From a virus, in IMG/VR virus record IMGVR_UViG_3300011013_000010, positions 1 through 64,000 of that record: a DNA stretch of 64,000 nt; one strand, 5' to 3'. A program made the position numbers and the translations under genes. The notes under the pieces were generated by a model that worked only from the letters and a program-made list of their open reading frames with translations, was not told the DNA's origin and did not search any database. Of the stretch, positions 2,998 to 49,538 are shown piece by piece; the first letter of the stretch is position 1, and every line of letters begins with the position of its first letter.

Positions 2998-5886
2998 ATG
3001 TCAATCAAGAAGTATAAGTTTGTTTCACCAGGCGTACAAATAAGAGAACTAGATCAATCACAACTTCCAAGAGTTTCTGATCCGATCGGTCCTATCGTTG
3101 TAGGTCGGAGCCGCAAGGGACCAGCCCTTATTCCAACTAAGGTGAATAGCTATCTTGAGTTTGTTGAGACGTTTGGTGCCCCTATCCGAGGAGCTGGTAC
3201 CGGTGATATCTGGAGAGATGGAAATACTACTTCTCCAACTTACGGTGCATATGCTGCTGAAGCATATTTGAAAAATTCAAGCCCTTTGACGTTCGTTCGT
3301 CTTTTGGGTGTCCAAAGCGGCGATGCTACTGCTGCTGATTCTGCTCAAGCAGGTTGGACAACAGAAAATACTTCTGCAACCACTCTTAACTCGACCAATG
3401 GTGGAGCTGTAGGTCTTTGGATTATTCCTTCGGCTTCTACGTACGCTTCTAATCTTACTGGCGCTCTTGCAGCTGTTTGGTACCTCAATAAGGGTTCAAT
3501 CCGCCTCGTCGGTGATGATCCTGTAGGAACCACTGTAGGCGGCAATGGTGCAGCTGTTTTGGTTAAGAACATTGGTTCTGGATTTGAGTTCCGTGCTCTT
3601 ATCGAAGATGAAACAGGTGCAACCATCAAGGACACCGCGTTTAACTTTAACCCTAACTCTTCGAAATATGTTCGAAAGGTTTTTAACACTAATCCAACTC
3701 TCATTAACGGCGATGTGACACCTGCTGCTTCCCTTGTAAACTATTTCCTTGGTGAAAGCTTTGAAAGTCACTTGAAAAATACTGTTAGTGAAAACAGCGG
3801 TAATATCGCTGGTAAAGTCCTTGGTTTTGTCGCAGCTATCGAAAATAGCTCAATCAATCAAGCAGACTTTAAGGGTGTTCAAGCTTCCGCAGCTAAAACT
3901 GGTTGGGTATTCGGTCAAGATCTTAATACCACTACTGGTAGCTACGTTGCTACTGATATGACCAAGTTGTTCCGATTTGTTGTAAACAAAGGTGACGGCT
4001 CAGGTGAGTGGGAACAAAACAATATTAAGATTTCGATTACTGATATCAAAGCTTCTAAAAGTGATTATGATCGTTTCGGTACTTTTACGGTAGAGATTCG
4101 TGCTATTGATGACACAGACTCTAACAAGAAAATTCTTGAAGTATTCCCACAATGTAGCTTGGACCCGAATTCGCTCAACTACATTGCTCGAAAGATTGGT
4201 GATAAAAACGTTGCTTGGGATGATGTTCAGCTTCGTCATCGTGAATATGGTGATTTTCCAAATGCTTCAAACTATGTTCGAGTTGAATTGAACACTGTTA
4301 TTGAGCAAGGTGGTATTGAGCCAGAGCTTCTTCCATTCGGTTTCTATGGTCCAACCAGATACAGCACTATTACTCTTACGAGTGGTTCGGCAGTTGCTTC
4401 AGCAGCTGTTATGAAGGGCTCAGGTTCAATGCCAGACGCTCCAGAATCTGGTGGTGGTACTATTGCTATGGGTATTACATCCGGTCAGATTACTGATTTC
4501 TCCGCTTCATTGAAGTTCCCTTCATTGCAAATGCGAGTTTCAAGTTCTGACGGTGGTGTCCTTAGCTCAAACCAAGCATATTTTGGTATTATTACTCAAA
4601 AAGTAGGTGCTCAGAAGTTTGACGAAGACGTTAGAGATTTGTTGAGGTCTAAGCCAGATGGTGTAAGTTCGCACGATTCTGCTACCTCTACAGAATATCA
4701 ATTTGTCTTCAGTCTTGACGATTTGGTTGCAGTGTCCGGTTCAAGCACAGAATCATACTGGCTTTCCGGTAGTCGCGCATCAGGCGCTTCTGTTACAGCA
4801 TTGTCGGCTTCTGTTACTGGTGCTCTTGAAGGATATCTTTCGGTTCTTTCTCGTGGACATGACAAGTTTACTATGCCACTATTTGGTGGACATGACGGAC
4901 TTGATATTACAGAGCGAGACCCGTTCAGAAACAACTTCCTTTCGAAGGGCTCAGCAACTAAAGATACTAACTACGGTGTAGCAAGTATTCGACGTGCTAT
5001 TGATACTTTCCGCGACCCAGAAGTTGTAGATGTTAATATCGCTACTGTTCCAGGTATTACACTTCCAGGTATCACTAATCACTTGATGGATACTGTTGAA
5101 GCTCGTGCAGATGCTCTAGCTATTATCGACCTTGAAAATGGTTATGTCCCTGCCCACGAAAACACTTCAGACGAATCATCGCGTGTTGGTTCGGTAGATA
5201 CGACTGTTACGGCTTTGAAAGCTCGCGCTCTCAATACAAGCTATGCTTGTTGTTACTACCCTTGGGTAAGAGTAAATGACTCAGAATCTGGTTCACCACT
5301 TTGGATGCCACCTTCTGTTGTCGCTCTAGGAACAATGGCTAGTTCACAAGAGAAATCAGACGTTTGGTTTGCTCCAGCAGGTTTCAATCGTGGTGGTCTT
5401 ACAGATGGTGCTTCTGGTCTTCAAGTTGTTGATGTACGAGAAAAACTAACTCAACCACAGCGTGATAAGCTTTATGAGAATAACATCAATCCGATTGCTT
5501 CATTCCCATCAGAGGGTATTGTAATCTACGGTCAAAAGACTCTACAGATTACGCCATCCGCTCTTGATAGAATTAATGTTCGTCGTCTTATGATTCACCT
5601 TAAGAAGGAAATCTCTGGAATCTCATCGAGAATCCTGTTTGACCAGAACTTGAAAGTAACTTGGGCTCGTTTCCTTGGACAGGTCCGTCCGTTCTTGGAA
5701 AATGTTCAAACAAACTTCGGTCTTGCGGACTTCCGTGTTGTTCTCGATGAGAAGACAACTACTGCTGATTTGATTGATAGAAATATTATGTATGCTCAGA
5801 TTTTCTTGAAGCCAGCTCGTTCAATCGAGTTCATTGCTCTAGACTTTATCGTCTCAAGAACAGGTGCTTCGTTCGAAGATCTATAA
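2998..5886 (+). CDS. Contractile tail sheath protein
   Basis: A 962-residue protein beginning KYKFVSPGVQIRELDQSQLP, the typical N-terminus of phage sheath proteins, followed by GPIVVGRSRKGPALIPTKV. The C-terminal third carries the other conserved sheath region (INPIASFPSEGIVIYGQKTL, then RINVRRLMIHLKKEI and ARSIEFIALDFIVSRTGASF). It polymerises around the tail tube and contracts during infection. It is longer than T4 gp18 (659 residues); the extra length lies in the central part (about residues 120-620), which probably forms surface domains. A strong SD precedes ATG 2998 and the tube gene follows. Confidence 0.93.
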   Translation: MSIKKYKFVSPGVQIRELDQSQLPRVSDPIGPIVVGRSRKGPALIPTKVNSYLEFVETFGAPIRGAGTGDIWRDGNTTSPTYGAYAAEAYLKNSSPLTFVRLLGVQSGDATAADSAQAGWTTENTSATTLNSTNGGAVGLWIIPSASTYASNLTGALAAVWYLNKGSIRLVGDDPVGTTVGGNGAAVLVKNIGSGFEFRALIEDETGATIKDTAFNFNPNSSKYVRKVFNTNPTLINGDVTPAASLVNYFLGESFESHLKNTVSENSGNIAGKVLGFVAAIENSSINQADFKGVQASAAKTGWVFGQDLNTTTGSYVATDMTKLFRFVVNKGDGSGEWEQNNIKISITDIKASKSDYDRFGTFTVEIRAIDDTDSNKKILEVFPQCSLDPNSLNYIARKIGDKNVAWDDVQLRHREYGDFPNASNYVRVELNTVIEQGGIEPELLPFGFYGPTRYSTITLTSGSAVASAAVMKGSGSMPDAPESGGGTIAMGITSGQITDFSASLKFPSLQMRVSSSDGGVLSSNQAYFGIITQKVGAQKFDEDVRDLLRSKPDGVSSHDSATSTEYQFVFSLDDLVAVSGSSTESYWLSGSRASGASVTALSASVTGALEGYLSVLSRGHDKFTMPLFGGHDGLDITERDPFRNNFLSKGSATKDTNYGVASIRRAIDTFRDPEVVDVNIATVPGITLPGITNHLMDTVEARADALAIIDLENGYVPAHENTSDESSRVGSVDTTVTALKARALNTSYACCYYPWVRVNDSESGSPLWMPPSVVALGTMASSQEKSDVWFAPAGFNRGGLTDGASGLQVVDVREKLTQPQRDKLYENNINPIASFPSEGIVIYGQKTLQITPSALDRINVRRLMIHLKKEISGISSRILFDQNLKVTWARFLGQVRPFLENVQTNFGLADFRVVLDEKTTTADLIDRNIMYAQIFLKPARSIEFIALDFIVSRTGASFEDL

Positions 5887-31774: not shown

Positions 31775-31928
31775 TAAAAAACTTCGCCTACCGCCACCTG
31801 ACGTTATGTTTGAGCTAATCAAAGCCCGCAGTGAAGAGATCCAGCGCATTGGGGTTTGTTGGCATTGTGATCAATGTCCGTGTGATTGTCGAGTAAAAAG
31901 AGAAACAATTCAAGAGGAGAGTAAATGA
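31767..31928 (+). CDS. Small Cys-rich protein before dnaE
   Basis: A 53-residue ORF between the nucleotidyltransferase-like gene and dnaE, overlapping both. Near the C-terminus it has CWHCDQCPCDC, five cysteines and a histidine in 11 residues, a likely zinc site. Its stop overlaps the dnaE ATG as ATGA, so translation is probably coupled. ATG 31764, in the same frame, is an alternative start. Confidence 0.55.
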   Translation: MIDKKLRLPPPDVMFELIKARSEEIQRIGVCWHCDQCPCDCRVKRETIQEESK

Positions 31929-33505
31929 GTAAAATACCTTTTGTTGGACTACATGCGCATTCTGCTTGTTCTGTGTATGATGGTTTGGGATTTCCAGATG
32001 AACATATTGACTTTGCGATTGAAAATGGTTCTGATGCACTAGCTTTAACGGATCACGGAAATCTAAATGGTTTGCCTTATCAGGTACTCCACTCTAAAAA
32101 GCTAGCAAAGGACGGCAAGAAGTTCAAACCAATCTATGGCGTTGAAGCATACTTCCATCCGTCTATTGAGCAATGGCAAAAAGACAAAGAACAGATTGAT
32201 GCAGAAAAAGCTGCTTCAAAAAAGAAGGGCAAGAAAGACACCGGAACGGAAGTGTCTGCTGCTACTGTTGAAGACGAAGGAGCATCTAAACAAGCAATCA
32301 AGAATATCATCAACAAGCGTCGTCATATGATTCTCTTGGCACAGAACCAAGAAGGACTTCAGAACCTTTTCAGAATGATCTCACAGTCTTACCAGACTCC
32401 AAACTTTTACAGATTTCCTCGCATTGACTATAAAATGCTTCAAGAGCATAACTCAGGCATCATTGCATCCTCAGCCTGTTTGGGTGGAGTGTATGCGGGG
32501 GATTTCTGGGAGCACCGAGACAATGGTGATGACGCAGTGTTGGAAGCAATGCGCGCTACCTCGCAGAATATGCTCGACATCTTTGGTGACAGGTGGTACG
32601 GCGAACTTCAATGGAACAACGTTGAGGAACAGCACCAACTTAATCAAATGATCATCAAGGTGTGCAAGGAATACAGCATTCCTTTGATCTCTACAGCAGA
32701 TAGCCATTACCCAAATCCTGATGCTTGGAAAGATCGCCTTCTTTACAAGCGCCTCGCGTGGGCAGGTAGCAAAGATGTTGATACCAATCTCCCTGAAAAT
32801 GTTGATGAGGTTGGTTATGAGCTTTACCCAAAGAATGGCGAACAAATGTGGGAGGCATACAAGAAGTATTCTGAAGCCCAAGGTGTGAAGTACGATGATG
32901 ATTTGGTTCGTGCCTCTTTGGAAGAAACTTGCAATATTGCACACGAGCGCATTGAAAGCTTCTATCCAGACAACAAGATTCGTCTTCCCAACTTTGTTGT
33001 TCCAAAGGGAACCACAGCAAAGGAAGAATTCATTAAGCTTGCCAACGAAGGTTTGCTTGAAATCAAGAAGCGCCTCAAACTGACTGGCAAAGAGTGGAAA
33101 GAATATAAAGATCGCCTTGAGTTGGAGCTTGAGGTGATTAACATCAATGGCTTTGCGAAGTATTTCCTCACTATGAAAGCTTTGGTAGATAGAGGTAACG
33201 AAGTAATGCTCTCCGGTCCTGCTCGCGGCTGTTTTCTGCCTGGGAACAAGGTTAAGATGGCAGACGATTTGTTTCTAAATATTGAAGAGATTCAAATTGG
33301 TGATATCGTTCTTGATGCTTTTAGTAACAAACGAGAGGTGATTGATACACTTTCTTATGACATAAACGAAGATATAATTGAACTGGAGTTTGAAGATGGT
33401 AAAAAAGTGAAATGTACGCTGGATCATAAGTTTCTAACTTCCAATAGAGGGTGGGTAGAAGCACAGAGTTTAACTGAAGATGATGATGTAGTTGAAGTTT
33501 CGTAG
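31925..33505 (+). CDS. dnaE: DnaE (Pol III alpha) N-terminal part fused to N-intein 1
   Basis: A 526-residue protein. Residues 1-435 are DnaE: the PHP domain starts with GLHAHSACSVYDGLGFPDEH and has ALTDHGNLNGLPYQVLH and GVEAYFHPS, and the polymerase part ends ALVDRGNEVMLSGPARG. DnaE normally continues G-SAAGS here. Instead Cys436 begins an N-intein (CFLPGNKVKMADDL, then IQIGDIVLD and VKCTLDHKFLTSNRGW) ending at an amber stop. The rest is encoded at 33687. A His-Lys linker-like insert (residues 90-120) is Lys/Ala-rich. Confidence 0.88.
   Translation: MSKIPFVGLHAHSACSVYDGLGFPDEHIDFAIENGSDALALTDHGNLNGLPYQVLHSKKLAKDGKKFKPIYGVEAYFHPSIEQWQKDKEQIDAEKAASKKKGKKDTGTEVSAATVEDEGASKQAIKNIINKRRHMILLAQNQEGLQNLFRMISQSYQTPNFYRFPRIDYKMLQEHNSGIIASSACLGGVYAGDFWEHRDNGDDAVLEAMRATSQNMLDIFGDRWYGELQWNNVEEQHQLNQMIIKVCKEYSIPLISTADSHYPNPDAWKDRLLYKRLAWAGSKDVDTNLPENVDEVGYELYPKNGEQMWEAYKKYSEAQGVKYDDDLVRASLEETCNIAHERIESFYPDNKIRLPNFVVPKGTTAKEEFIKLANEGLLEIKKRLKLTGKEWKEYKDRLELELEVININGFAKYFLTMKALVDRGNEVMLSGPARGCFLPGNKVKMADDLFLNIEEIQIGDIVLDAFSNKREVIDTLSYDINEDIIELEFEDGKKVKCTLDHKFLTSNRGWVEAQSLTEDDDVVEVS
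33230..33505 (+). other. N-terminal half of split intein 1 (DnaE PARG/SAAGS site)
   Basis: 91 residues beginning with the nucleophile Cys436. Block A is CFLPGNKVKM...IEEIQIGDIV and block B is VKCTLDHKFL, containing the TxxH pair needed for the first acyl shift. It stops at TAG 33503-33505. Confidence 0.85.
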
Positions 33506-33703
33506 AATGAGAATACAATTGTAGAAGTAAAGGGACGGGGCAGATGGTATGACAATAACAAGAAACAAGTTGACAAAAAGTTTTCAGTTTTAGAAGAGTT
33601 TTGTGAAGTAAATGGAATGATATCTAGAATGATATTTGACGATGAAATAGGGAAAGACTTGTGGAAAGAAGCAAAAAGGATTCATAATGAAAATTGTAAA
33701 TAA
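33506..33703 (+). other. Open frame beyond the amber stop of N-intein 1
   Basis: The frame of the N-intein stays open for 65 codons after TAG 33503-33505 and ends at TAA 33701-33703, 17 bases into the C-intein ORF in another frame. It reads like protein (WYDNNKKQVDKKFSVLEEFC, then EVNGMISRMIFDDEIGKDLW). It is probably the remnant of the central intein or endonuclease region lost when the intein split. Amber readthrough would give a longer N-half. Confidence 0.4.
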
Positions 33704-33791
33704 AAAAATAGTTCCCTATAAGGGAAAAGTTCACGATCTTACAGTTGAGATTTCTCACACATACAATGTGGAAGGTAAAGCTGTTCATAAT
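33687..33791 (+). other. C-terminal half of split intein 1
   Basis: 35 residues: MKIVNKKIVPYKGKVHDLTV, then EISHTYNVEGKAVHN. It has the block F pattern (V-x-D-L-x-V...HTY-x-V) and ends His-Asn, followed by Ser as the +1 extein residue. Length and start are typical of natural split C-inteins. Confidence 0.87.
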
Positions 33792-35363
33792 TCTGCTGCT
33801 GGTTCATTGGTGGCTTATGCTTTGAAGATTACACAAATCAATCCCATTCAATGGGATCTTCAGTTCGAACGTTTTATGACCAAGAATCAGAAAGACAATG
33901 GCTTTCCTGATATTGATCACGACGTTTCAGATCCAATGAAGTTGAAGGATATCCTCATCGACGCTTGGGGGGACAATGTGGTTGTTCCTATTTCAAACTG
34001 GAACACGTTACAACTGCGCAGTCTTATCAAGGATGTTGGTAAGTTCTATGGTGTTCCGTTTACTGAAACAAACGCAGTAACTAATAAAATGCTTTACGAA
34101 GCTACGCCAAAAGCCAAGGCTGCTCACGGCATCAAGGCAGGTCTCTATGTTCCAACCTTTAAAGAGGTGATGGAATATAGTGATAGTCTTCAAACTTTCC
34201 TTGCGAAATATCCTCACATTGAAACTCACGTTACCCGTTTGCACGGCTCTATTAAGAGTGCTTCACGCCACGCTGGCGGTATTGTGATTGCTGAAAACCT
34301 AGATGAGTGGATGCCATTGATCAACTCTAAGGGTGTCCGCCAGACTCCTTGGTCTGAGGGTATGAATGTTAAGCACCTAGAACCTTCAGGTTTTATTAAG
34401 TTTGATCTTCTTGGGTTAGCATCTCTTCGTATGATGGAAGTGGCGATTACTCACATTTTGAAGAGACACTATGACATTAAAGAGCCGACCTTTGCACAGG
34501 TTAAGGAGTTTTACGACACGAAACTACACCCAGACAACCTCGACCTCAACGATCAGGACGTCTACACTAATATTTTTCACGAAGGGCGTTGGGCAGGTGT
34601 GTTTCAATTTACGAATGACGGCGCTCAAAAACTTTGTTCCAAAGCTAAGCCAACAAACATTGTTGATATTTCAGCAATAACAAGCATTTACAGACCAGGA
34701 CCCATGTCTGCGAACGTTCACGTTGATTACATTAAGGCAAAAAACGACCCAAAAAGCGTTGAATATCCTAATAGATATTACCAAGCAGAGACGGAAGAAA
34801 CTTTTGGCTTCTTGATTTTTCAGGAACAGATTGCTAAGATTGCACATAGGATTGGGCAGGACTTGTCACTTGATGAAGGTAATAAGCTTAGAAAGGTAAT
34901 CATCAAGCGTGATGCTGCTTCTAAGAAGTTGACAGAAAAGTTGCACAAGAAGTTTTCCGATGGTGCAGCTAAAAAAGGCATTCTGCCAAGTGATGCAAAT
35001 GATTTGTGGGAGAAGTTTGAGTTCTTCTCAGGTTATGGTTTTAATAAAAGCTTGCACTTTTCCGAACTAGTGTCTATTTATGATGTAGAAGGAAATTTTG
35101 TAGGAGATAAACCAATCAAAGAAGTTGTTCCTGGCGATTATGTTCGCTCTAGGGACGAAGCAACAAAAGAAGATATTTTTGTGGCAGTAAAAGAGAACCA
35201 CAATCACGGTAAGTTAAAATTGATTGAATTTGAACTAGACACGGGAGAAAGGGTAAAATGCACAATGAATCACAAGTTTCGAGTAAGAGACGGAAGAATG
35301 CTTCCTTTGTGGAAAATTTTAGAGGAGGATTTGGATATCGTTGTGTCTGCGGAAAAGAAGTAA
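33687..35363 (+). CDS. dnaE: DnaE middle part, C-intein 1 at N-terminus and N-intein 2 at C-terminus
   Basis: A 558-residue protein in three parts. Residues 1-35 are C-intein 1 (ending VEGKAVHN). Residues 36-454 are DnaE palm and fingers: SAAGSLVAYALKI, the catalytic pair in FPDIDHD (Asp75, Asp77), SASRHAGGIVIAEN, the third catalytic Asp240 in FIKFDLLGL, ITSIYRPGPM and FLIFQEQIAKIAH, ending FFSGYGFNK. Residues 455-558 are N-intein 2, beginning with Ser. It therefore needs trans-splicing at both ends to become part of a continuous polymerase. Confidence 0.88.
   Translation: MKIVNKKIVPYKGKVHDLTVEISHTYNVEGKAVHNSAAGSLVAYALKITQINPIQWDLQFERFMTKNQKDNGFPDIDHDVSDPMKLKDILIDAWGDNVVVPISNWNTLQLRSLIKDVGKFYGVPFTETNAVTNKMLYEATPKAKAAHGIKAGLYVPTFKEVMEYSDSLQTFLAKYPHIETHVTRLHGSIKSASRHAGGIVIAENLDEWMPLINSKGVRQTPWSEGMNVKHLEPSGFIKFDLLGLASLRMMEVAITHILKRHYDIKEPTFAQVKEFYDTKLHPDNLDLNDQDVYTNIFHEGRWAGVFQFTNDGAQKLCSKAKPTNIVDISAITSIYRPGPMSANVHVDYIKAKNDPKSVEYPNRYYQAETEETFGFLIFQEQIAKIAHRIGQDLSLDEGNKLRKVIIKRDAASKKLTEKLHKKFSDGAAKKGILPSDANDLWEKFEFFSGYGFNKSLHFSELVSIYDVEGNFVGDKPIKEVVPGDYVRSRDEATKEDIFVAVKENHNHGKLKLIEFELDTGERVKCTMNHKFRVRDGRMLPLWKILEEDLDIVVSAEKK
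35049..35363 (+). other. N-terminal half of split intein 2 (DnaE GFNK/SHAV site)
   Basis: 104 residues beginning with Ser instead of Cys: SLHFSELVSIYDVEGNFV, PIKEVVPGDYV and block B VKCTMNHKFRVRDGRM. The insertion point is three residues downstream of the Y/CFNKSH site used by the cyanobacterial split DnaE intein. Confidence 0.82.
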
Positions 35364-36343
35364 AAACATCGAGTGGTTTGTATAAGCACGGTAAGAAATG
35401 TGAAGAATATTTAAAGACTGAAAGTGTTTTTCGAAATTCTATTCTAGCAGAGGCTAAAGAAAAAGCAGAACAAGAAGGAAAAATTAAATGTTTGAATTGT
35501 TCATACTGGGGACACAACTTAAAAGAACACATTAAAAACAATCATAATTTGACATTAGAGCAGTATTCTGGACAGACTTTATCGGAGCCGACGAAAGAGA
35601 ATTATTCAAACCAAAATAAAGAAAATGGGGACTGGATTACAAGAGAAAAAGAGAAAGGTACTGATTTGAAAGAATATTTTAAACACATGGGAGAAAGTGT
35701 TTCTAGGTCTATTTTAAACAATCCGAAAGAAAGAAAACGACGTTCACAACTTTTAGGAAATCTGAACAAGAGAGAAGATTTTCGTTACCGTGCTTCGGAA
35801 ACAGCCAAGAAAACTTCGAATAGAAAAGACATTCAAGAACAACGCGCGCTGCGTCTTAAGAAATGGAGAGAAGAAAATCCTGAAGAGTTTTATGAGAAGT
35901 GTATCAAGCAGATGCACAAATTCAAATCAAAACCAGAGAAAGATCTGTTTCGATACTTAATAGAGTTTTTTGAAGAGTTTGAATTCAAAAATAATCAACA
36001 GATTCAAGACAATTTGTTCTCTATGAATAAAACCAGAAGAAAACAAGTAGATATAATTTCTAAAGAGAACAAAGTGATCGTTGAAGTTGACGGACCTTAC
36101 CATTTTAAACCAATAAGAGGAGAACAGGTATTAAAAAACGTTGTACTGAAAGATAAAGCTCTAAATAAATATGCGTTTAAAGAAGAGTTTCTTCTTGTAA
36201 GAATATCGACTTCTCAATACGACTATCGTGGTGAAGGAGAGTTCTCAGAAAAGTGTCTTGACAAACTTAATGAATTGCTGTACAATAGACAGCCTGGTAT
36301 ATTTTTTTTAGGAGAAGAATATGGCGAAAATAATTGCTTATAG
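35258..36343 (+). CDS. Vsr-like (EDxHD-type) homing endonuclease inside the split dnaE
   Basis: A 361-residue protein starting within the end of the N-intein 2 ORF. The N-terminus has Cys/His fingers (YRCVCGKEVKTSSGLYKHGK and KCLNCSYWGHNLKEHIKNNH). The C-terminal third is a Vsr/DUF559-like nuclease: KSKPEKDLFRYLIEFFEEFE, KQVDIISKENKVIVEVDGPY, HF, then LLVRIS. This matches the endonuclease family described with fractured genes and split inteins (Dassa et al. 2009). ATG 35258 has AAAGGG upstream and no other Met occurs until the middle. Its 3' end contains a promoter and overlaps the next dnaE part. Confidence 0.8.
   Translation: MHNESQVSSKRRKNASFVENFRGGFGYRCVCGKEVKTSSGLYKHGKKCEEYLKTESVFRNSILAEAKEKAEQEGKIKCLNCSYWGHNLKEHIKNNHNLTLEQYSGQTLSEPTKENYSNQNKENGDWITREKEKGTDLKEYFKHMGESVSRSILNNPKERKRRSQLLGNLNKREDFRYRASETAKKTSNRKDIQEQRALRLKKWREENPEEFYEKCIKQMHKFKSKPEKDLFRYLIEFFEEFEFKNNQQIQDNLFSMNKTRRKQVDIISKENKVIVEVDGPYHFKPIRGEQVLKNVVLKDKALNKYAFKEEFLLVRISTSQYDYRGEGEFSEKCLDKLNELLYNRQPGIFFLGEEYGENNCL
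36258..36286 (+). promoter_or_regulatory. Promoter at the endonuclease 3' end, reading into dnaE part 3
   Basis: TTGACA (36258-36263), 17 bp and TACAAT (36281-36286), inside codons for CLDKLNELLYNR. It lies 35 bases upstream of the C-intein 2 start, so the inserted endonuclease could supply transcription to the dnaE fragment behind it. Confidence 0.55.
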
Positions 36344-36431
36344 AGAAAATGAAGAAGGAGAAACATTTGATCTCGAACTTGAGCATCAAGATCATCAATA
36401 TTATCTTGCCAACGGCGTGTTAACTAGTAAC
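36321..36431 (+). other. C-terminal half of split intein 2
   Basis: 37 residues, MAKIIAYRENEEGETFDLEL followed by EHQDHQYYLANGVLTSN. It has the F-D-L-x-L...H-x-Y-x-L-A-N-G block and terminal Asn; the penultimate residue is Ser rather than His. The +1 extein residue is Ser. Confidence 0.82.
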
Positions 36432-36542
36432 TCGCACGCTGTTTCTTATTCCGTACTCTCATATCAATGTGCTTGGTTGATGAACTATTATACTGTTGAG
36501 TGGATGGCAGCTTTTTTACAAATGGAGGAGGAAAAGAACTAA
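36321..36542 (+). CDS. dnaE: DnaE third part: C-intein 2 plus 36 extein residues
   Basis: A 73-residue protein. Residues 1-37 are C-intein 2 (ending YYLANGVLTSN); residues 38-73 are DnaE sequence SHAVSYSVLSYQCAWLMNYY followed by TVEWMAAFLQMEEEKN, the canonical continuation of GFNK. After two splicing events the product would be 435+419+36 = 890 residues. The SD is AGGAGAAG. It stops at TAA 36540-36542, where a normal DnaE would continue for about 260 residues. Confidence 0.87.
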   Translation: MAKIIAYRENEEGETFDLELEHQDHQYYLANGVLTSNSHAVSYSVLSYQCAWLMNYYTVEWMAAFLQMEEEKN

Positions 36543-36650
36543 GCTCTTCTGCTTATGAGACAACCAAAAGGTTGCTAAGAAATAATAAATGAAAGCAGCA
36601 TATAAGATAGAAAATATCGTAAATAACATTTCCTGGAAGGATAAAAAACT
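36543..36650 (+). other. 108-bp spacer breaking dnaE a third time
   Basis: Between two consecutive DnaE segments. It holds a perfect CAACC-AAAA-GGTTG hairpin (36561-36574), an ORF of 21 codons starting ATG 36589 (MKAAYKIENIVNNISWKDKK) that overlaps the next start as ATGA, and an SD (GGAAGG). No intein, intron core or endonuclease motif was seen. Confidence 0.5.
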
Positions 36651-37439
36651 ATGAGTAATATAGAAAAAGCCATCAGCATCGCTAAGGGGCAAGGGTTTGA
36701 AATAATGCCTTTGGATATCAACAAGTCTGGTGCGGTGTGGGAAATCTCTGAAGATGGAAAGACGCTCATTCAGCCCCTCACTTCGATCAAAGGATTCGGC
36801 GAGAAAGCAATGAAAGAAGTGGTAGACCATCGCCCATTCAATACAATTGAGGAGTTCTTGTTCCACCCTCGTGTGCTTTACAGTAAGTTGAACAAAAAGA
36901 ACCTTGATGTATTATGCAGGAGTGGTGCTTTGAAGTGCCTGCAAGATGAGAGGTTCACAGGAGATAAGCATTTTTGGACAGCTGTTGCAGTAATGCGTCC
37001 GCGCAAGCCTAAGGATTTGGAAGACAATATTACAGCAGAAGAGTTCCGTGAGGAAGGAAGCTTTAGTAAAGAGGAGCAAATCAGCAACCTTGTGGAATTG
37101 ATCGGTCAGTTTCCGATTAGACAAGTAATGCCAGATTCAACTATTCAGCGTCTTGAAGAGCGTGGTATTCCAGCTATTGGAGATTTTGATCCAGAGGAAG
37201 ATGATGTAGTATGGTTTATTCCGCGCAAACTAATCAAAAAGAAAACAAAGAGAGGAAGTACATACGTGATTATTGAATGTGTAGACAGTTCTAGCAAGAT
37301 TACGAAAATTAAGTGTTGGAACTTTAAAGATTCAACTAAGATTTACATTAATCGTCCATATGTTGGGCGTGTAGAGTATGATGAACAGTGGGGTTTTTCC
37401 ACTCGTTCAGCTTCTCATAACTTTAAGTTGGTGGGATAA
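36651..37439 (+). CDS. dnaE: DnaE C-terminal part (HhH and OB region)
   Basis: A 262-residue protein with no intein sequence. It continues DnaE: IEKAISIAKGQGFEIMPLDI, then NKSGAVWEIS, ITSIKGFGEKAMKEVVDHRP (helix-hairpin-helix) and LNKKNLDVLCRSGAL, followed by a domain with YVIIECVDSSSKITKIKCWN like the OB fold. With the 890 spliced residues the total is about 1150, the usual DnaE length. It has its own SD, so it probably joins the polymerase as a separate subunit. Confidence 0.82.
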   Translation: MSNIEKAISIAKGQGFEIMPLDINKSGAVWEISEDGKTLIQPLTSIKGFGEKAMKEVVDHRPFNTIEEFLFHPRVLYSKLNKKNLDVLCRSGALKCLQDERFTGDKHFWTAVAVMRPRKPKDLEDNITAEEFREEGSFSKEEQISNLVELIGQFPIRQVMPDSTIQRLEERGIPAIGDFDPEEDDVVWFIPRKLIKKKTKRGSTYVIIECVDSSSKITKIKCWNFKDSTKIYINRPYVGRVEYDEQWGFSTRSASHNFKLVG

Positions 37440-47948: not shown

Positions 47949-49538
47949 ATGAAAAAATATGCACATGGCTCTGGATTACACGAAAAGATTCTCTTGGGAG
48001 TAAATAAGTTAGCAGATAACGTTGCTTCTACAATGGGACCGCGCGGCAGAACTGTTATTCTCAATCAGGCTGGTCGAGCGCCTATCGTAACTAAGGATGG
48101 TGTTTCAGTCGCCCGCTTTGTCGAACTTGAAGAGCCATTTGAAAATGCCGCTGCCAACATTATCAAACAAGCAGCAGAACAAACAAACACTTCAGGTGGC
48201 GACGGTACGACGACCGCTACTGTCTTGGCACGTGCTATTCTTGCCAAGGCACATCGGCACTTGGTTGCAGGTAACTCTCCTATTGAGGTGAAGCGCGGCA
48301 TTGATATTGCAACCAAAGCCTTGGTCGCCGGTATCAAAAATATCTCACATCCAATTTCTAGTCTTGACGATATTATAAATATTGCAACAATCTCAGCCAA
48401 TGGCGATGAAGTTGTTGGTAGAATGATTGGTGAAGCGGTCGATTCCATAGGTAAAGATGGTTCAATCACCATCAAAGAGGGTGGAGCTATGGAGACAACA
48501 GTTGAAGTAGTGGAAGGATTTAGGATTGATGCTGGAGTGGCGTCGTCAAAGTTCATCACTAATGATCGCCTTAACCTTATGAAGTATGAAAATCCATACT
48601 TTCTTGTAACTGATGGAATAATCAATCAAGTGTCTCAAATCTTACCAGCTCTTCAGTTGGTTGCAAGAGAAAAGAAACCTTTGATTATTGTCTCGGAAGA
48701 GATTATGGATGAAGCGCTTGCGGCTCTTATTGCGAACGTATTGAGGGGTTCTCTTAAAGTGGCAGCTATTAAAGCTCCTGCATATGGCGAAGAAAGAAGA
48801 GAGATTTTGAGCGATTTGGCTCTCACAGTGGGTGGAACTTTCTTTTCAGAAAGCGCCAATGAACCTCGGGATATCGAATCGGTTAAATTAAGTGATTTTG
48901 GTAAAGCTGACTCTATTGAGTCGAGCAAATATAAGACAACTATCATTAATGGCGCAGGAAGTTCAGACAATATTCAGGTACGTTTGGATTCTCTTGAAGC
49001 TGAATTGGAGGAAGTAGATGATCTATACATTTGTGAAAAGATTCAAGCTCGCATTGCTCGGTTGGCTAGCAGCGTTGCTATTATTTTTGTCGGTGGAAAA
49101 ACAGAAGTTGAAATGATTGAACGAAAACATCGCATTGAGGACGCTCTAGAAGCCGTTCGTTCTGCTCAGGCTGAGGGAATGGTTGAAGGCGCTGGCGTGG
49201 CTCTCCTAGCCGCTCGCTTCGCCCTGGAGGACGTAGAAACTACTCACCCAGAGCAACAAGCAGGCATCCAAGTGATGAAGGAAGTTTGTGAGGCGCCAAT
49301 AAGACAAATTTTAGAAAATGCCGGTGCTGGAGCAGATGTGATTATTGATAAATTGAGGAATTTGTTGAGTGATACAGATAATGAACCTGTAGTTTATGAT
49401 TTGGTGAGCGAAGATTATGTCAATCCCTTTGAGAAGGGTATTATTGATCCTGCAAAGGTAACCCGTTGCGCTTTGGAAAATGCTGCCTCGGCTGCTTGTG
49501 CTTTGATTACAACGGACTACGCTGTTGTTGAGGTGTGA
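47949..49538 (+). CDS. groEL: GroEL-like chaperonin
   Basis: A 529-residue group I chaperonin. Hallmarks: NVASTMGPRGRTVILNQAGR, PIVTKDGVSVARFVEL, QTNTSGGDGTTTATVLARAI (nucleotide-binding GDGTTT), the apical domain with PLIIVSEEIMDEALAALIAN, APAYGEERREIL-type sequence, and HRIEDALEAVRSAQAEGMVE with the ATPase Asp. It lacks the GGM repeat tail. It folds phage or host proteins, probably with the GroES-like protein at 28210. No CIRCE element is seen; a short ACTGT-CAAAA-ACAGT hairpin lies before the SD (GTGAGGAA). Confidence 0.93.
   Translation: MKKYAHGSGLHEKILLGVNKLADNVASTMGPRGRTVILNQAGRAPIVTKDGVSVARFVELEEPFENAAANIIKQAAEQTNTSGGDGTTTATVLARAILAKAHRHLVAGNSPIEVKRGIDIATKALVAGIKNISHPISSLDDIINIATISANGDEVVGRMIGEAVDSIGKDGSITIKEGGAMETTVEVVEGFRIDAGVASSKFITNDRLNLMKYENPYFLVTDGIINQVSQILPALQLVAREKKPLIIVSEEIMDEALAALIANVLRGSLKVAAIKAPAYGEERREILSDLALTVGGTFFSESANEPRDIESVKLSDFGKADSIESSKYKTTIINGAGSSDNIQVRLDSLEAELEEVDDLYICEKIQARIARLASSVAIIFVGGKTEVEMIERKHRIEDALEAVRSAQAEGMVEGAGVALLAARFALEDVETTHPEQQAGIQVMKEVCEAPIRQILENAGAGADVIIDKLRNLLSDTDNEPVVYDLVSEDYVNPFEKGIIDPAKVTRCALENAASAACALITTDYAVVEV

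What the first reader, a model, noticed from the sequence alone, without database searches (positions are those of the whole stretch)
31925..37439. DNA polymerase III alpha encoded in four pieces and rejoined by two different split inteins
Sequence shows PARG|Cys...amber; Met...VHN|SAAGS...GFNK|Ser...stop; Met...TSN|SHAV...stop; then a separate HhH/OB part. Extein lengths 435+419+36+262 add up to a normal DnaE. Two sequential trans-splicing events would be needed to make the palm/fingers, and both junctions are in highly conserved polymerase motifs. Split-intein fractured genes are known, but two in one phage polymerase, with distinct chemistry (Cys1 and Ser1), is rare. Orthogonality of the two inteins would be essential to avoid mis-joining.
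Basis: partly seen in the sequence, partly recalled or inferred. Interest (0 to 1): 0.95.

Follow-up and report, generated by a model that had tools for sequence, protein, structure and literature searches.

The report
Phage polymerase split by two inteins
A bacterial virus encodes its main DNA-copying enzyme in four separate genes, and two unrelated self-splicing protein elements, each cut in half, are predicted to stitch the first three pieces together around the active site, a natural counterpart of a three-part protein assembly that I otherwise found described only as an engineered method.

Summary
In a myovirus contig, the only dnaE gene (31925-37439) is broken into four ORFs. The extein pieces (435+419+36+262 aa) line up end to end with about 40 uninterrupted phage DnaEs (mostly 54-60% identity). 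Joints 1 (GPARG|SAAGS) and 2 (GYGFNK|SHAV) close without a gap.

Intein 1 (Cys1, TLDH, HN|Ser) and intein 2 (Ser1, TMNH, SN|Ser) belong to separate lineages; intein 2 is nearest the cyanobacterial split DnaE inteins. A Vsr-like homing endonuclease gene fills intein 2, its start overlapping the intein's catalytic block B. The gap in intein 1 holds the last 65 codons of a decayed endonuclease that is intact at the same place in other phages. The third break has no intein, so piece 4 (HhH/OB) is probably a separate subunit.

Both sites are intein hotspots; two other phage contigs also carry both split inteins, and others show mixed states. Best reading: a doubly fractured gene with tandem trans-splicing of three pieces, where cognate pairing must avoid cyclising or skipping the catalytic piece. 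Splicing itself is inferred, not shown. It is a new variant of the known 'fractured gene' kind (Dassa 2009).

The parts
31925..33229 (+). Extein 1 (435 aa): PHP domain and start of the palm, ends GPARG
   Evidence: PF02811 PHP 1.3e-29, TIGR00594 9.7e-56 over residues 6-435; seamless with relatives
33230..33505 (+). Intein 1 N half (91 aa, Cys1, block B TLDH) and TAG stop
   Evidence: PF14890 1.5e-6 and TIGR01445; 58-62% identical to N halves at the same site in L069, L071, L080, L086
33506..33703 (+). Remnant of a homing endonuclease gene (last 65 codons and stop), lacking the front of the nuclease
   Evidence: Matches the end of an intact endonuclease at the same place in L071/L074/L085 (33%, E about 5e-6) and L091 (9e-5)
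33687..33791 (+). Intein 1 C half (35 aa, ends VHN)
   Evidence: 47-72% identical to C halves at the same site in other phages; upstream AAAGGA
33792..35048 (+). Extein 2 (419 aa): catalytic palm (PDIDHD, KFDLLGL) and fingers, ends GFNK
   Evidence: PF07733 and PF17657; motif positions
35049..35363 (+). Intein 2 N half (104 aa, Ser1, block B TMNH) and stop
   Evidence: TIGR01445; 55-63% identical to L004-L009 and L084 at the same site; nearest PDB DnaE inteins
35258..36343 (+). Free-standing Vsr-like homing endonuclease ORF (361 aa) with N-terminal zinc-finger-like part; overlaps both intein halves in other frames
   Evidence: Same ORF in same place in L004, L005, L008, L009, L084 with invariant E276, D278, H282, D299; fold match 1vsr prob 0.98, E 0.02
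36258..36286 (+). Promoter-like site (TTGACA-17-TACAAT, 11 of 12) just before the C half of intein 2
   Evidence: Consensus scan only; total number of sites is not above shuffles
36321..36431 (+). Intein 2 C half (37 aa, ends LTSN)
   Evidence: TIGR01443; 51-77% identical to L004-L009, L084
36432..36542 (+). Extein 3 (36 aa) and stop
   Evidence: DnaE models match residues after TSN; seamless with relatives
36543..36650 (+). Spacer of the third, intein-free break
   Evidence: Stops in all frames; no Rfam match; fold z -1.6
36651..37439 (+). Extein 4 (262 aa): HhH and OB part, own Shine-Dalgarno-like sequence and ATG
   Evidence: PF14579 3.7e-14; model pLDDT 87.6; matches Pol III alpha structures

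Best explanation
A doubly fractured phage dnaE. Two unrelated inteins sit in two hotspots of one polymerase gene: the SAAGS motif of the palm and the FNKSH motif of the fingers. Each is split into separately translated halves, giving three precursors: e1-IN1, IC1-e2-IN2 and IC2-e3. Intein 1 (Cys1 to Ser+1) joins e1 to e2 and intein 2 (Ser1 to Ser+1) joins e2 to e3, giving an 890-residue PHP-palm-fingers chain. The 262-residue HhH/OB part has no intein half and is predicted to bind as a separate subunit. The central piece carries the palm catalytic motifs and an intein half at each end; cross-reaction of IN2 with IC1 would cyclise it, and IN1 with IC2 would give a dead e1-e3 product, so cognate pairing must dominate. 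The breaks were probably made by homing endonuclease genes: intein 2 still carries its Vsr-like gene, intein 1 keeps only the tail of one. Shown: anatomy, seamless joints, separate intein lineages, recurrence. Inferred: splicing, orthogonality, endonuclease activity, non-covalent binding of piece 4.
For: Exteins align end to end with uninterrupted relatives and close without a gap at both joints. Intein blocks and terminal residues intact, recognised by curated models and solved inteins. Two inteins separated 100/100 in the tree. Endonuclease gene in intein 2 conserved in place and sequence in distant phages. Endonuclease remnant in intein 1 matches intact copies at the same site elsewhere. 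Other contigs with both split inteins: L086, L089. Inteins about 50-70% identical to those of phages whose exteins are about 22-34% identical, while close extein relatives lack them. Shine-Dalgarno-like sequence before each piece. No other dnaE in the record.
Against: No splicing, protein or transcript data. One contig from a metagenome. Penultimate residue of intein 2 is Ser, not His (also so in cyanobacterial DnaE inteins, from general knowledge). L007, a relative of intein 2, has Thr at position 1, so not every member need be active. Piece 4 is not joined by any known means.
Confidence: 0.87

Rival explanations
1. The pieces work together without splicing: they bind each other non-covalently and the intein halves are leftovers.
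For: Piece 4 must already do something like this; intein-free breaks occur elsewhere, for example in e2 of L086.
Against: Intein catalytic residues are kept in both inteins. Both joints lie inside conserved motifs, where an unremoved intein half would be expected to block function.
Confidence: 0.07
2. The gene is a decaying wreck: selfish elements have broken the phage polymerase and the host Pol III does the work.
For: The endonuclease of intein 1 has decayed; four pieces in all.
Against: Every extein is open and keeps its motifs; every piece has a start and a Shine-Dalgarno-like sequence; the same double break persists in other lineages.
Confidence: 0.04
3. Assembly or sequencing error.
For: Single metagenomic contig; near-identical records may be left out of the searches, so no second copy was seen.
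Against: Breaks fall at intein half boundaries with start codons and Shine-Dalgarno-like sequences. The third spacer has stops in all frames. The same split points and endonuclease layout recur in independent contigs.
Confidence: 0.02

Closest known systems
Fractured genes (Dassa et al. 2009, NAR 37:2560, PMID 19264795; content from memory, full text not held)
   Same: Phage DNA-synthesis gene broken by a split intein with a free-standing, often Vsr-related, endonuclease gene in between
   Different: Two unrelated split inteins in one gene plus an intein-free break; one endonuclease intact, one reduced to a remnant. Whether that paper lists a DnaE with two breaks could not be checked
Cyanobacterial split DnaE inteins (Npu, Ssp)
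   Same: Split intein in the FNKSH region of DnaE; intein 2 is homologous
   Different: Insertion point about 4 residues downstream, Ser1 instead of Cys1, endonuclease gene between the halves, phage gene
Multi-intein DnaE of cyanobacteria (Trichodesmium, Liu and Yang 2003, title seen; here L092, L094, L102, L113, L119, L126, L127)
   Same: Several inteins in one dnaE; the same joint 1 site plus the split DnaE site
   Different: The joint 1 intein is contiguous in those loci, so one trans-splicing event; here both are split
Split PolB of Pseudomonas phage MIJ3 (PMC6892783)
   Same: Phage polymerase broken by a split intein with an endonuclease gene inside
   Different: One split intein, family B polymerase, HNH endonuclease
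Engineered tandem protein trans-splicing (PMC12707363, PMC7210297)
   Same: Two split inteins joining three segments, with cross-reaction to be avoided
   Different: Engineered; here the same topology occurs in phage genomes

Membership tests
Bacterial-type Pol III alpha (DnaE) | PHP, palm/NTPase, fingers and HhH domains in order, palm aspartate motifs | tested here: met
Split intein | Nucleophile at position 1, TxxH, C-terminal Asn, nucleophile at +1 | tested here: met
   Cys1/TLDH/HN/Ser and Ser1/TMNH/SN/Ser
Split intein | Halves encoded in separate ORFs with own starts | tested here: met
Split intein | Trans-splicing activity | not testable with these tools
   Needs co-expression or mass spectrometry
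Fractured gene (Dassa 2009) | Conserved enzyme gene broken by a split intein | tested here: met
   Both inteins
Fractured gene (Dassa 2009) | Free-standing endonuclease gene between the halves, intein 2 | tested here: met
   35258-36343, conserved in 5 other contigs
Fractured gene (Dassa 2009) | Free-standing endonuclease gene between the halves, intein 1 | tested here: not met
   Only the last 65 codons remain; intact in L071, L080
Vsr-related homing endonuclease | Vsr-like nuclease fold | tested here: inconclusive
   Best fold match 1vsr, prob 0.98 but E 0.02, model pLDDT 70; no sequence match of the nuclease part in the PDB
Cyanobacterial split DnaE intein | Insertion at Y|CFNKSH with Cys1 | tested here: not met
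   Inserted at GFNK|SH with Ser1; homologous to that lineage but a different site. The cyanobacterial +1 sequence is from general knowledge

The most novel reading that the evidence does not exclude
Phage DnaE is a natural multi-fragment assembly line: orthogonal split inteins at a fixed set of active-site motifs repeatedly break the replicative polymerase into three or more chains that must be spliced in trans, and the phage intein 2 lineage is related to, perhaps the source of, the classic cyanobacterial split DnaE intein.
Probability: 0.35. Interest if true: 0.8.

Novelty: new variant of a known kind. Interest (0 to 1): 0.62.

Why it matters
It is a natural case of three-segment protein assembly by two split inteins, a layout that the papers I could search describe only as an engineering method. 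It supplies new split-intein pairs, one with Ser1, that occur together in one cell and so may be naturally orthogonal. The relatives show several stages of gene breaking at the same site: contiguous intein, split with an intact endonuclease, split with a remnant, and halves far apart. That makes the origin of split inteins, including the widely used cyanobacterial DnaE ones, testable by comparison.

Tried and rejected
Third break as an intein, an intron or ribosome bypassing: no intein half at the break, no credible Rfam match in the region, fold not significant, stops in all frames. After the last sense codon AAC, the only AAC just upstream of piece 4 would land in the wrong frame (TAT GAG TAA). 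Its 108-nt spacer has no convincing relative in the fetched loci.

Second dnaE copy in the record: none. Other inteins in the window: none found with half-intein profiles. Inteins 1 and 2 as duplicates of each other: rejected by the tree.

Charge as the rule for orthogonality: it fits intein 1 (-13/+3 in the window, same signs in 8 relatives), but intein 2 relatives range from -6 to +7 in the C half, so it is no general rule.

Literature: no natural double split-intein polymerase turned up in the held library, but the key 2009 paper is not held. Endonuclease by sequence against the PDB: only zinc-finger regions matched.

Full report
What is there. The window is 64 kb of a 65.8-kb virus record with a tail-sheath gene, a UvsX-like recombinase, a DnaB-like helicase, a ribonucleotide reductase and a GroEL-like gene, so it is a contractile-tailed phage. 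One dnaE is present; nothing else in the record matches an uninterrupted DnaE. It is read as four ORFs. Piece 1 is PHP plus the start of the palm, piece 2 the rest of the palm and most of the fingers, piece 3 the next 36 residues, piece 4 HhH and OB. Joined in order, the exteins give 1152 residues that align end to end with about 40 uninterrupted phage DnaEs, mostly at 54-60% identity.

The joints. At joint 1 the relatives inspected read G[PA]GRG-SAAGS, and at joint 2 GYGFNK-SHAV. The window closes on both without an extra or missing residue. Intein 1 starts with Cys, has TLDH in block B and ends HN before Ser. Intein 2 starts with Ser, has TMNH and ends SN before Ser. Both are recognised by intein models and by solved inteins: intein 1 is nearest NrdJ-1 (E 3e-7), intein 2 nearest the cyanobacterial DnaE inteins (E 1.5e-11). 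In a tree, the inteins of joint 1, phage and bacterial together, are split from those of joint 2 plus the cyanobacterial split inteins by a fully supported branch (100/100). The two inteins are therefore not copies of one another. Placement within the joint 2 side is uncertain because some rows are long and the cyanobacterial rows are N halves only.

The endonucleases. Its first codons (MHNESQ) are written in another frame over block B of the intein (TMNHKF), and its last codons overlap the start of the C half. The same ORF in the same place occurs in L004, L005, L008, L009 and L084. Its best structural match is the Vsr endonuclease (prob 0.98, E 0.02, model pLDDT 70), which fits the Vsr-related family that I recall from Dassa 2009, but is not strong enough to be final. 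In the gap of intein 1, 65 codons in the frame of the N half, after its TAG, match the end of an endonuclease that is intact at this very place in L071, L074 and L085 (33%, E about 5e-6). L069 and L086 show short remnants at the same spot by eye. So intein 1 was probably once a full fractured intein that has lost its endonuclease, while intein 2 still has one.

Recurrence. A pattern for the end of any intein at joint 1 (HN-SAAGS-LV) found 24 phage loci, some of them near-copies, and about 36 bacterial ones after setting aside chance hits. In the bacterial loci where both ends are visible the intein is contiguous: 412-429 aa in cyanobacteria, Persephonella and others, 212-438 aa in Sulfurovum and relatives. 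In phages it is often split. Two contigs, L086 and L089, have joints 1 and 2 both split. L086 also has an intein-free break with an exonuclease-like ORF in it. L089 has a third, contiguous intein. Both have a LAGLIDADG-looking ORF (by eye) at joint 2 instead of the Vsr-like one. L071 has joint 1 split, a contiguous intein in the fingers, and an N half at joint 2 whose probable C half lies at the far end of the contig. L084 has joint 2 split with the same endonuclease and only a C half for joint 1. L070 and L082 have a contiguous mini-intein at joint 1 and a split one at joint 2. These states make a believable series from intact to broken.

Transfer. The inteins of the window are about 50-70% identical to those of phages whose DnaE is only about 22-34% identical, while the phages with the closest DnaE have no inteins. 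Both elements therefore probably arrived by lateral transfer.

How it most likely works. Shown: separate ORFs with starts and Shine-Dalgarno-like sequences, intact splicing residues, seamless joints. Inferred: two trans-splicing reactions make an 890-residue chain. The middle precursor carries an intein half at each end and both palm aspartate motifs (PDIDHD and KFDLLGL). If IN2 paired with IC1, the catalytic piece would close on itself; if IN1 paired with IC2, it would be left out. The N halves are weakly alike and the C halves share little. By charge, IN1 (-13) and IC1 (+3) attract, IN1 and IC2 (-6) should repel, and IN2 (-4) with IC1 (+3) is not excluded. These are predictions, not measurements.

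The third break. Piece 4 starts with its own Shine-Dalgarno-like sequence and ATG after a 108-nt spacer with stops in all frames. No intein half, intron or significant RNA fold was found there. Piece 4 is predicted to fold on its own (pLDDT 87.6) and matches Pol III alpha structures. It is best taken as a subunit that binds without a covalent bond. The title's 'rejoined' therefore applies to three pieces, not four.

Place among known systems. This belongs with the fractured genes and is a new variant of them: two unrelated split inteins in one polymerase. Papers describe the three-segment topology as an engineered method (PMC12707363; PMC7210297). I found no natural example in the held library, but the 2009 paper could not be read, so priority is not established.

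Noticed in passing
L052, L053, L054: 2814-4703 and 4690-6771: In relatives of this DnaE (47% identity) what looks like another split intein sits inside the catalytic motif: PDID|CLWSG... and MEIIKHHSFKESYKTVIVHN|CDFSR, with a C half of only 20 residues. Three contigs from three metagenomes share it.
   Followed up: partly
L071 with G016:C1:1667-2767: Phage DnaE with three inteins; the probable C half of the joint 2 intein lies at the other end of the 142-kb contig.
   Followed up: partly
L089: 2097-10332: Phage DnaE with three inteins: one contiguous in the PHP region, two split at joints 1 and 2.
   Followed up: partly
L086 (5287-6111), L071 and relatives: Intein-free break of DnaE before the fingers, with an exonuclease-like ORF inside the break by eye.
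   Followed up: no
L007: 7165-7482: Joint 2 split intein without endonuclease gene and with Thr at position 1, an unusual first residue.
   Followed up: no
L067 in G011 (51-52 kb and 67-70 kb): Pieces of one phage DnaE lie about 16 kb apart.
   Followed up: no
L070: 2036-3098: The joint 2 endonuclease gene is broken into two overlapping frames, an early decay state or a sequencing error.
   Followed up: no
L092, L094, L102, L113, L119, L126, L127: Cyanobacterial dnaE genes carry a contiguous intein at joint 1 as well as the N half of the classic split DnaE intein.
   Followed up: partly
L055: 3423-6787: Relative of the window's DnaE with many frame changes, one near the third break; probably sequencing errors in that contig.
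   Followed up: no
window 36258-36286: Strong promoter-like match (TTGACA-17-TACAAT) at the end of the endonuclease gene, just before the C half of intein 2.
   Followed up: no
window 2998-5886 and 47949-49538: An unusually long tail-sheath protein (962 aa) and a GroEL-like chaperonin gene.
   Followed up: no
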